This document shows, piece after piece, positions 4,350 to 28,506 of a DNA stretch of 28,624 nt. The notes under the pieces are model-generated. The model searched no databases and was not told the DNA's origin. It worked only from the letters and a program-made list of their open reading frames with translations. The position numbers and the translations under genes were made by a program. Position 1 is the stretch's first letter, and each line of letters starts with the position of its first letter. The stretch lies in the IMG/VR virus record IMGVR_UViG_3300046011_001225, positions 1 through 28,624 of that record; one strand, 5' to 3'. The stretch is from a virus.

Positions 4350-4380
4350 ATGCGTTATTTTCGCAATATTCAACTAAAAA

Positions 4381-4696
4381 AGTAAAAGTGTAAAAGTTTA
4401 GAAAAGTTTTTGAGAGCAAACTTTTACTATATTTAGTATTGATGTTCAATAAGTTACGGCAAAAAGTAAAAGTTTTGAGTGAAAACCCAACTCCTTATAA
4501 TATAGGGAATGACTCAGCAAAATATTTTTTTAAAATTCGATGCAAACTTTTACTTTTTGTAGTTAAGTAATTGATTAACAATATTTTAGATAGTAAAAGT
4601 TTGTAAAATGAAGTTTTCCTATTGGTTTGTAAGTTGTTAAATATCAAATAGTTAAGTAGTAAAACTTTTTTATTAAAACTTTTCTAAACTTTTACT
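4381..4696 (+). repeat. AT-rich iteron region, probable replication origin
   Basis: In this non-coding stretch a motif AGTAAAAGTT or its reverse complement recurs: direct copies at 4381 (AGTAAAAGTG), 4390 (GTAAAAGTTT), 4465 and 4592, inverted copies at 4419, 4545 and 4687, and a partial one near 4658. A 20-base inverted repeat, TAAAAGTTTAGAAAAGTTTT (4391-4410) with its complement at 4675-4694, brackets the block. The DNA between is very AT-rich. Iterons beside an AT-rich unwinding zone, between ERF and helicase genes, fit a phage replication origin. The iteron-binding initiator is unknown; the products of 4833 and 5126 are candidates. No ORF over about 30 codons with coding character is present. 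Confidence 0.6.
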
Positions 4697-4718
4697 GTAT
4701 TTATATTAGAATAATATT

Positions 4719-4726
4719 TATATTTG
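4719..4726 (+). promoter_or_regulatory. Putative -7 box of the replication-operon promoter
   Basis: TATATTTG matches the Bacteroidetes -7 element TAnnTTTG exactly and is followed by GTACCC, where the leader RNA begins. There is no clear TTG about 19-20 bases upstream (GTATTT instead). The promoter at 28045 also lacks a TTG there. It lies at the edge of the iteron block, so an iteron-bound protein could repress or activate it. Confidence 0.5.
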
Positions 4727-4728
4727 TA

Positions 4729-4826
4729 CCCGTTCGGGCATGAACATTCAAGAAATTATTTAGAAACCCTTTGAATGAGTAGCGATGCCCCGCAAAAGTT
4801 CAAAGGGTTTTATTATTTAAGGGCAT
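4729..4826 (+). promoter_or_regulatory. Leader RNA with attenuator-like hairpin and complementary loops
   Basis: Hairpin GTTC (4732-4735) with GAAC (4742-4745) displays the loop GGGCAT (4736-4741). A 12-bp perfect stem AAACCCTTTGAA (4764-4775) with TTCAAAGGGTTT (4799-4810) displays a 23-base loop containing ATGCCC (4785-4790), exactly complementary to GGGCAT. The stem is followed by TTTTATTATTT, as in an attenuator. A second GGGCAT (4821-4826) lies seven bases before the start codon of the next gene (4833). CCC (4729-4731) can also pair with GGG (4736-4738). These competing pairings suggest a loop-loop (pseudoknot) switch controlling transcription or translation of the replication genes. Confidence 0.5.
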
Positions 4827-4832
4827 TTAATT

Positions 4833-5141
4833 ATGATTAAAATTACATTAAAAACAATTGAAGTAAATAAAGAAGAGTTTATTGAAGAAATTGTAAAATT
4901 AGCATTTGATTTACAAAACTATACACCTATAAAATTTATAGATAGGAAAGTTTTTAATCAACATTTTAAAACGAAACTTTCAGAATTAGAGTTTTCTAAA
5001 TTAATTAATGATTTAAACGAAGATGGTTTGTTTTGTAGTAATATTCATTATTCTAAAGATTACAAAACTGAAATAATTACTAAAGAAGTTTGCTTATATG
5101 TTTATTCAATCCTAAATTCAAATTTATGTCACAACAAATAG
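4833..5141 (+). CDS. Hypothetical protein at the head of the replication operon
   Basis: 102 residues, basic and helix-rich, starting MIKITLKTIEVNKEEF. The middle (FIDRKVFNQHFKTKLSELEFSKLINDLNEDGLF) reads like a helix-turn-helix or winged-helix unit, followed by a possible wing (SNIHYSKDYKTEIITKEVCLYVYSI). That and the position immediately after the iterons and leader RNA would suit an origin-binding or autoregulatory protein, but no family is recognised. Its start is seven bases after the GGGCAT element. Its end overlaps the helicase gene by 16 bases. Confidence 0.65.
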   Translation: MIKITLKTIEVNKEEFIEEIVKLAFDLQNYTPIKFIDRKVFNQHFKTKLSELEFSKLINDLNEDGLFCSNIHYSKDYKTEIITKEVCLYVYSILNSNLCHNK

Positions 5142-6553
5142 AGTTCTGGAGTTTTACTGAAAAGGGAGTTCCTTCGTTAAACAATAAGTTATTCAAACAT
5201 TTTCTTTCAGACAATAATTTTTATAAATATAAACCAACAAAAGATGCTTCAAGTTCATTTGTTATAATTCAAAAGAACGGTATATTTTTAGAAATTATAA
5301 ACGAAATTGATGTAAAGGATTTTGTTTTAGATTACATTGAAAATAATAATATTGAAGATAGGGTTTTTAATCTTATGTCTGGTAACTTAAAGTTTTTTAA
5401 ACGTGAGTTTCTTTCAATGATAAACAGTATTGATATTGAAATATTTAAAGACGACCGAGATACAAGCTATTTATTTTATAAAAATTGTATTGTTAAAACA
5501 ACTAAGGATAAACGTGAACTAATTCAGTATAATGATGTAAGTATTTCAATCTGGAAAGACCAAATTATTAAACGTGATTACACCGAATGCGACCACCATA
5601 CTTCGCAATACCGTGAATTTATTTGGAAAATTAGCGGTGAAGATGTAAACAGATATAACACGTTTCAATCTATTATAGGTTACTTAATTCACTCATATAA
5701 ATCAAAAACAGATAATTTTGCAATAGTTCTAAACGATGAAATGATAAGCGACGAACCAAACGGCAGGAGCGGAAAAGGTTTGTTCTGGAATGCTTTAAAA
5801 AACCTTAAAAAAGTTCAATCAATTGACGGAAAAACGTTTAGTTTTGGAAAATCTTTTCCTTATCAAAGTGTTTCAACGGATTGCCAGGTTTTAGTGTTTG
5901 ACGATATTATTAGAAACTTTCCATTTGAAAAACTATTTAGCGTAATTACAGAGGGTTTAACAATTGAATACAAAGGTAAAGATGCAATTCATTTACCTAT
6001 TGAAGAAAGCCCAAAGATTTTAATAACTACAAATTACACCGTTAAAGGTGATTCAGGTTCACACGAAGCGAGAAAGTTTGAAGTTGAACTAAGTACTTTC
6101 TTTAATGCAAATAACACACCTAAAGACTATTTTAAGAATGAATTATTTAATGATTGGGACGCTGAAGAGTGGGCAAGATTTGATAATTATATGATTGAAT
6201 GCGTAAAGAAATATTTAACAAGTGGATTGGTGAAATCAGCACCTAAAAATTTAGGAATAAGAAAGCTAAAAGATAAAATTGGAAATGAATTATTTACATT
6301 TATAGAAACTATTACCAAAAACGATTGGGTTTCGATTAAAGATATTTATGATAAATTTATGCTTTCTTATCCAGAATTAAAAAAGTTTGGATATACTCAA
6401 AACAAATTAACTATTAATTTAAAAGCTTATTGGAAATTTTATAATATTCCATTTGAAGAAAGAACGTCAAGTGGAGTTTTGAAATTCTTTATTGTAGAAA
6501 AAACAAAGAAAGTTGAAATTTGGGACGAACTAAATAAAAAAGCAGGATTATGA
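5126..6553 (+). CDS. SF3-like replicative helicase (DUF5906 / primase-helicase C-terminal type)
   Basis: 475 residues from ATG 5126. An in-frame ATG at 5090 would add 12 residues but lies deep in the upstream gene. The ATPase core is clear: Walker A-like G213-R-S-G-K-G-L219, Walker B QVLVFDDI with Asp259 and Asp260, and motif C ILITTNY with Asn303, then a conserved SHEARKFEVELS arginine-rich segment. This order is that of superfamily 3 helicases in phage primase-helicases, which unwind DNA at the origin. The N-terminal 190 residues show no zinc finger or primase motif that I can identify, so a primase function is unproven. The C-terminus (about 365-475) looks like a winged-helix DNA-binding part. 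Unusually, the Walker A lysine is followed by glycine and leucine rather than serine or threonine. Confidence 0.8.
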   Translation: MSQQIEFWSFTEKGVPSLNNKLFKHFLSDNNFYKYKPTKDASSSFVIIQKNGIFLEIINEIDVKDFVLDYIENNNIEDRVFNLMSGNLKFFKREFLSMINSIDIEIFKDDRDTSYLFYKNCIVKTTKDKRELIQYNDVSISIWKDQIIKRDYTECDHHTSQYREFIWKISGEDVNRYNTFQSIIGYLIHSYKSKTDNFAIVLNDEMISDEPNGRSGKGLFWNALKNLKKVQSIDGKTFSFGKSFPYQSVSTDCQVLVFDDIIRNFPFEKLFSVITEGLTIEYKGKDAIHLPIEESPKILITTNYTVKGDSGSHEARKFEVELSTFFNANNTPKDYFKNELFNDWDAEEWARFDNYMIECVKKYLTSGLVKSAPKNLGIRKLKDKIGNELFTFIETITKNDWVSIKDIYDKFMLSYPELKKFGYTQNKLTINLKAYWKFYNIPFEERTSSGVLKFFIVEKTKKVEIWDELNKKAGL

Positions 6554-28284: not shown

Positions 28285-28506
28285 ATGACACCAAAAGAGA
28301 AAGCAATTAGCTTAGTAGATAGCTACCGAATGATTTTAATGAATGAAGACACTGAATGTGGTGAGGAGATACTATGTACTGTGATAGCCAAGCAATGTGC
28401 ATTAATTGCAGTTGATGAATTAATAAAAGAAGAACGCAAAACAGATGATTATTACGAAATAGGAAGTTATTGGAGACAAGTTAAAAAAGAAATAAAAAAA
28501 TTATAA
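28285..28506 (+). CDS. Small conserved protein, paralogue of 241-453
   Basis: 73 residues. It shares the MTPKEKA start and the C-terminal LIAVDELIKEERKTDDYYEIGSYW (24 residues, also exact at the DNA level, 28402-28473) with 241-453. The middle differs and contains two more cysteines (CGEEILC). Such pairs arise by local duplication followed by recombination or divergence. The function is unknown. Confidence 0.8.
   Translation: MTPKEKAISLVDSYRMILMNEDTECGEEILCTVIAKQCALIAVDELIKEERKTDDYYEIGSYWRQVKKEIKKL

What the first reader, a model, noticed from the sequence alone, without database searches (positions are those of the whole stretch)
4729..4841. Possible RNA switch with loop-loop complementarity before the replication genes
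The loop GGGCAT (4736-4741) of a small hairpin is exactly complementary to ATGCCC (4785-4790) in the loop of a perfect 12-bp attenuator-like hairpin, and a second GGGCAT (4821-4826) lies seven bases before the start codon. ATGCCC can therefore choose between an upstream and a downstream partner. This recalls pseudoknot-controlled replication initiator leaders of IncB/IncI-type plasmids, though no homology is claimed. Such a device next to an iteron origin would be new for Bacteroidetes phages as far as I know.
Basis: partly seen in the sequence, partly recalled or inferred. Interest (0 to 1): 0.8.

Follow-up and report, generated by a model that had tools for sequence, protein, structure and literature searches.

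The report
Self-pairing RNA leader controlling phage replication
Many viruses of Bacteroidetes bacteria begin their replication operon with a short RNA whose two hairpin loops always match each other but differ from virus to virus, like interchangeable lock-and-key pairs, which suggests an RNA-based immunity or self-limiting control not previously described for these viruses.

Summary
On its own the window's match would be weak evidence: a GGGCAT/ATGCCC/GGGCAT triple arises in about 0.8% of shuffled leaders. Related phages make it strong. The window's leader belongs to an RNA family absent from Rfam: a TAnnTTTG promoter, a 5' hairpin with loop A, a terminator-like hairpin whose apical loop B is complementary to A, then the replication operon. 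About 30 different A/B pairs were found. In 41 aligned leaders all 328 A-B pairs are Watson-Crick with no G-U, every change in A is matched in B, and specificity switched at least 14 times on the backbone tree. The third copy, C, at the start codon covaries with A and B in five leader types including the window's; most other leaders lack it. Leaders move as cassettes between nearly identical flanks. Cultured phages carry it: elemoA-D and elemoE/F, infecting one Flavobacterium strain, have identical promoters but different A/B pairs.

Best reading (about 50%): a self-antisense control RNA working like phage P4 CI RNA (seqA-seqB-seqC), not shown to be homologous. A purely cis-acting kissing attenuator is the main rival. 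No RNA data exist.

The parts
4719..4726 (+). Bacteroidetes-type -7 promoter element TATATTTG; transcription would start near 4732, at the foot of hairpin A
   Evidence: Sequence; a TAnnTTTG lies just upstream of A in most relatives. Start site inferred.
4732..4745 (+). 5' hairpin A, GTTC-GGGCAT-GAAC; element A = 4736-4741
   Evidence: hairpin present in the other leader types with different sequences; stem covaries in alignment A2.
4763..4818 (+). Terminator-like hairpin (perfect 12-bp core 4764-4775/4799-4810) followed by a U-rich tail
   Evidence: the corresponding stem covaries in A2; found by model R1 (window 29.1 bits, E 0.006).
4782..4793 (+). Inner stem GCG/CGC closing apical loop B = ATGCCC (4785-4790), beside an internal loop of AGUA/GAA type (window reads AGUA/AAA)
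   Evidence: inner stem GCG/CGC here is GTG/CAC in L002, GAG/CTC in Harreka_1 and elemoE, GCC/GGC in L010.
4821..4826 (+). Element C, GGGCAT, 6 nt before the first start codon; same sequence as A, complementary to B
   Evidence: Present and covarying in five leader types, absent in the A2 family.
4833..5141 (+). First gene of the operon, 102 aa, unknown function; replaced by an HNH endonuclease or missing in relatives
5126..6553 (+). Replicative helicase/primase-type gene (475 aa), the conserved cargo of the operon
   Evidence: phrog_28855 E 4e-95, weak DNA primase match phrog_6088; close relatives in L002-L010 are 91-97% identical.
4377..4705 (+). Iteron-like direct and inverted repeats of (A)GTAAAAGTTT upstream of the leader, presumed origin
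   Evidence: conserved at 85-94% in relatives, also where the leader is replaced.

Best explanation
The leader is a self-antisense control RNA of the early replication operon. Transcription starts at hairpin A; many transcripts end at the B hairpin and give a roughly 80-90 nt small RNA with a protected 5' hairpin. Loop B of this RNA pairs with loop A of new leader transcripts (from the same genome, sister genomes or a superinfecting phage of the same type). In lineages with C it also pairs with the start-codon region, reducing read-through and translation of the replication genes. Shown: the A-B (and in five types A-B-C) pairing by covariation, the position before replication genes, and exchange as a cassette. 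Inferred: start site, termination, action in trans, direction of the effect and immunity.
For: 41 leaders: 328 of 328 A-B cells Watson-Crick, no G-U although the stems use G-U, 57 cells changed on both sides, covariation score reached by 0/500 shuffles. 74 of 74 complete hits of a loop-blind pattern keep an exact 8-nt or longer A (the 77 hits also held two truncated leaders and one non-leader match). In a second family the 18 real leaders match while the chance pattern hits do not. Finder: about 105 leaders, 0 in 1.2 Mb shuffled. Specificity switched at least 14 times on the backbone tree; A/B 3.25 changes per site against 1.24 in stems. Leader is an island: L002 94% / 41% / 94% (origin, leader, rep), while L004 shares the leader at 94% with flanks of 85-86%. 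Same-host phages elemoA-D and elemoE differ from just past an identical promoter and carry TGAGAGC or GTGGAGG. Genomes with two leaders have two different pairs. In A2 the invariant loop positions read Y-U-N-A, matching the YUNR U-turn of antisense RNAs. P4 CI RNA has the same A-B-C order before replication genes (PMC4825925).
Against: No transcript data. No tyrosine integrase in 27 and no serine recombinase in 20 phage records, so classic lysogenic immunity is unlikely. C is missing from most leaders. The AGUAGAG..CUCGAAAC family shows little diversity: 11 of 18 leaders share GTGGTGG. Covariation alone cannot separate pairing in cis from pairing in trans. Different pairs in two-leader genomes are expected anyway when the leaders come from different subfamilies.
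Confidence: 0.5

Rival explanations
1. Cis-acting kissing-loop attenuator: A and B of the same transcript pair as the RNA is made and set the strength of the terminator (and, with C, of the first start codon). No action between molecules and no immunity.
For: A and B lie 40-60 nt apart in one transcript with a flexible linker; B sits on a terminator-like hairpin; predicted pairing energies of -7 to -17 kcal/mol; leaders also precede HNH and methyltransferase-like genes, which suits a generic early-gene attenuator.
Against: Gives no reason for frequent switching of specificity between nearly identical backbones or for cassette exchange of specificity; no G-U intermediates at all. The one candidate antiterminator helix tested shows no covariation.
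Confidence: 0.3
2. Plasmid-type translational switch (IncB/IncI-like): B pairs with C to form a pseudoknot next to the start codon that activates or blocks translation, with A as competitor, and an antisense RNA from the other strand as regulator.
For: C covaries with B in five leader types and lies 0-6 nt before the first start codon.
Against: C is absent in most of the family, where A-B is kept. C precedes different first genes (102-aa ORF, HNH gene, or a short space before rep). No antisense promoter or leader peptide was demonstrated.
Confidence: 0.1
3. Structural role only: the kissing complex is a compact 5' structure for RNA stability or for binding a phage or host protein; its sequence drifts freely as long as it pairs.
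For: Conserved spacer AAAGA(A/C)GTTATTAA and an AGUA/GAA-like internal loop that could bind protein; inner stem invariant in A2, though part of it was fixed by the search pattern.
Against: Neutral drift through single changes should leave G-U or one-sided intermediates; none among 328 cells, and loops change faster than stems.
Confidence: 0.08

Closest known systems
Phage P4 CI RNA immunity (seqA - CI RNA with seqB - seqC)
   Same: One untranslated leader before replication genes with an internal RNA segment complementary to a sequence upstream (seqA) and one downstream (seqC), acting by premature termination (PMC4825925). The window has the same A-B-C order.
   Different: No sequence or Rfam match; B lies in an intrinsic-terminator-like hairpin (P4 CI RNA is processed from a longer transcript); most relatives lack C; no integrase found; host phylum differs. 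Trans action not shown.
C4 antisense RNA of phages P1 and P7
   Same: Phage-encoded short structured RNA with variable specificity loops pairing with sites near a ribosome-binding site; controls superinfection (PMC5320573).
   Different: C4 has three stem-loops, two different target loops and RNase P processing (PMC5320573). Rfam holds C4, and no match was found.
IncI/IncB plasmid rep leader pseudoknots
   Same: Loop of a leader hairpin complementary to a site next to the rep start codon; replication control (own knowledge).
   Different: There the antisense RNA is from the opposite strand and a leader peptide is involved (own knowledge). Here the A-B pair is the conserved core and C is optional.
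Plasmid copy-control antisense RNAs with kissing loops and YUNR U-turns (RNAI, CopA and the like)
   Same: Hairpin loops that set incompatibility and diversify in matched pairs (own knowledge); YUNR-like positions in the A2 loops.
   Different: Sense and antisense come from opposite strands there; here both partners are on one transcript.

Membership tests
P4 CI RNA | Complementary sites upstream (seqA) and downstream (seqC) of the antisense segment in one leader | tested here: met
   Met in the window and four other leader types; only the upstream site in the rest.
P4 CI RNA | Leader of the operon encoding the phage replication protein | tested here: met
   Helicase/primase-type gene in the window; annotated replication proteins in elemoE, elemoA-D and Harreka_1.
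P4 CI RNA | Sequence or structure homology to the known RNA | tested here: inconclusive
   No Rfam match at gathering scores in the window or in L125, L185, L018, L053; it was not checked that Rfam holds a P4 CI model, and no direct comparison was made.
P4 CI RNA | Stable processed small RNA acting in trans to terminate transcription | not testable with these tools
   Needs RNA from infected cells.
P4 CI RNA | Carried by an element able to form lysogens or plasmids | tested here: inconclusive
   No tyrosine integrase in 27 and no serine recombinase in 20 records; plasmid maintenance not tested; records may be incomplete.
C4 antisense RNA (P1/P7) | Match to the C4 family model | tested here: not met
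   no match to any of 4227 families at gathering score.
IncI/IncB rep leader | Leader loop complementary to a site just before the replication gene's start codon | tested here: inconclusive
   C precedes the first gene of the operon, only sometimes rep itself (L005, L008, L009), and is missing in most relatives.
IncI/IncB rep leader | Antisense RNA from the opposite strand and coupled leader peptide | not tested
   No antisense promoter or leader peptide search was completed.
New leader family defined here (model R1 and A-B rule) | Promoter, 5' hairpin A, terminator-like hairpin with exactly complementary apical loop B | tested here: met
   Window scored by R1 at 29.1 bits, E 0.006; A-B exact.

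The most novel reading that the evidence does not exclude
A widespread RNA-only immunity system of Bacteroidetes phages that lack a detectable integrase: each phage's early leader RNA silences the replication operon of any co-infecting phage with the same loop code. Phages escape by switching to a new orthogonal loop pair or by exchanging the leader cassette, possibly helped by the HNH endonuclease genes that often travel with it.
Probability: 0.3. Interest if true: 0.92.

Novelty: new variant of a known kind. Interest (0 to 1): 0.77.

Why it matters
It would be a new, widespread phage RNA family with a readable specificity code (about 30 matched loop pairs found) at the control point of replication, in a phylum whose phages are poorly understood. 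Self-antisense immunity is described for P4 and P1/P7. A variant in phages without a detectable integrase would suggest RNA-based competition between lytic phages. Cultured phages on one host strain with two different codes make it directly testable, and the orthogonal pairs could serve as regulatory parts for Bacteroidetes.

Tried and rejected
Known RNA family: none at gathering score; weak hits in the sensitive scan look like chance matches of hairpins. Chance: window alone is only moderately significant, rejected by the comparative data. Classical attenuator with antiterminator (UUAUUAA/UUAAUGA in A2; a CATTCAA/TTGAATG candidate seen in the window only): no covariation in A2, 0 double changes. 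Host-encoded element: model R1 found 1 of 299 Flavobacteriaceae genomes (a 1.9-kb stretch with a replication-type gene) and 0 of 395 Bacteroidota genomes, so mainly phage-borne at that sensitivity, which is low for distant subfamilies. Blast of leaders against phages and plasmids gave only short chance matches; protein-guided searches found the cultured examples. Phages Leef_1, BT-TP2, Panino, Larrie and MW202828 showed no such leader in the stretches read. Further targets of A elsewhere in nine genomes: no consistent site. A MAFFT alignment of the C-bearing leaders was too divergent to count pairs on.

Full report
Observation. The three hexamers and both hairpins are in the sequence as described. 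C lies 6 nt before the ATG, and B is the apical loop of an inner 3-bp stem inside the long hairpin. In isolation the evidence is modest: A-B complementarity occurs in 6% and the triple in 0.8% of shuffled flanks, although the 90-nt leader folds better than any of 200 shuffles (z -4.05). Rfam has no match at gathering score.

Close relatives. Eleven IMG/VR loci carry the helicase/primase-type gene. The leaders of the nine closest fall into different sequence types with one architecture. L004-L009 share the window's GGGCAT type. L002, whose rep protein is 97% identical, has GTTCGG / CCGAAC / GTTCGG. L003 and L010 have AAGTGG / CCACTT / AAGTGG. With more relatives, L023 and L057 (AGTACAG) and L034 (CATCCAC) were added. 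In all five types C lies 0-6 nt before the first start codon.

The wider family. A scan for promoter plus terminator-like hairpin showed more leaders with perfect A-B pairs but without C. A pattern fixing only the hairpin flanks and leaving the loop free returned 77 loci; every one with a complete leader upstream (74) has an exact 8-nt or longer A. In the alignment of 41 distinct leaders all 328 A-B cells are Watson-Crick with no G-U, 57 are changed on both sides, and sliding or shuffling destroys this. The stems around them do contain G-U pairs. Model R1 from this set recovers the window (E 0.006), L004, L002, L034, L018, L022, L026, L048 and L104; the ones inspected each have their own A-B pair. 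A scanner found about 105 leaders in 3.6 Mb and none in 1.2 Mb of shuffled sequence. A second pattern for leaders with an AGUA/GAA-type internal loop gave 29 hits; the 18 true leaders have matching A, while the chance hits do not. About 30 distinct A/B pairs were seen in total.

Diversification and exchange. On a tree of the backbone the specificity switched at least 14 times; A/B positions changed 3.25 times per site against 1.24 in stems, and each A change is mirrored in B. Window and L002 agree at 94% before and after the leader but only 41% within it, whereas L004 shares the leader at 94% with flanks of 85-86%: the leader moves as a cassette. In A2 the invariant loop positions spell Y-U-N-A, like the YUNR U-turn of antisense recognition loops (link inferred). 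Some genomes hold two leaders with different pairs. A caution: in the AGUAGAG family 11 of 18 share one pair, so rapid switching is not universal.

Cultured phages. Flavobacterium phages elemoE/F carry GTGGAGG/CCTCCAC, elemoA-D carry TGAGAGC/GCTCTCA, and Olleya phage Harreka_1 carries GTGGTGG/CCACCAC, each upstream of an annotated replication protein. The elemo phages all infect Flavobacterium sp. BAL314. ElemoE and elemoD are 96-100% identical up to and including the promoter and then differ through leader and replication genes.

Mechanism. Shown: pairing, position and exchange. Inferred: an RNA that starts at hairpin A and largely stops at hairpin B, so that B of one molecule can engage A (and C) of another. 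P4 CI RNA works in this way: it pairs with seqA upstream and seqC downstream in its own leader and shuts off replication genes by premature termination (PMC4825925). The parallel is functional; no homology was found. No tyrosine integrase was found in 27 records and no serine recombinase in 20, so any immunity would act during lytic or plasmid-like carriage, or the RNA may simply limit replication over time. A purely cis-acting attenuator fits the pairing data equally well but explains the frequent switching less well.

Verdict. A real, structured and widespread phage RNA element, not matched by Rfam and not found in the papers searched. Pairing is close to certain (my estimate 0.97); the trans-acting control reading is about even odds.

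Noticed in passing
L003:3411-4001, L023:1253-1738, L057:2568-3065, L154, L120, L150, L140: NUMOD4/HNH endonuclease genes often sit directly behind such a leader or within the same operon (Pfam for the first three; others by sequence resemblance); they may move the leader cassettes.
   Followed up: partly
L018, L053, L185/L211, L154/L212, L120, L150: Genomes with two leaders of different A/B type in front of different genes (replication, methyltransferase-like, HNH-like).
   Followed up: partly
window:27902-27970: A second promoter-terminator unit without A-B loops (TATATTTG ... GAGCCGTTTG-TTAATT-CAAACGGCTTTTTTT); a similar unit lies in L035 (616-683) and looser ones in L004 and L009. Possible other small RNA.
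   Followed up: no
window:241-453 and 28285-28506: Two short ORFs sharing a nearly identical stretch (CALIAVDELIKEERKTDDYYEIGSYW), a duplicated gene near both ends of the contig.
   Followed up: no
window:7539-8069: Weak sigma-factor-like protein (phrog_1740, E 9e-4) downstream of the replication genes; a phage sigma factor might drive later genes.
   Followed up: no
L005, L008, L009: Leader joined almost directly to the helicase gene with the 102-aa ORF missing, leaving a 4-codon ORF overlapping the rep start; possible translational coupling.
   Followed up: no
L234:5438-5511: In elemo phages a tRNA-Met gene lies just upstream of the leader promoter.
   Followed up: no
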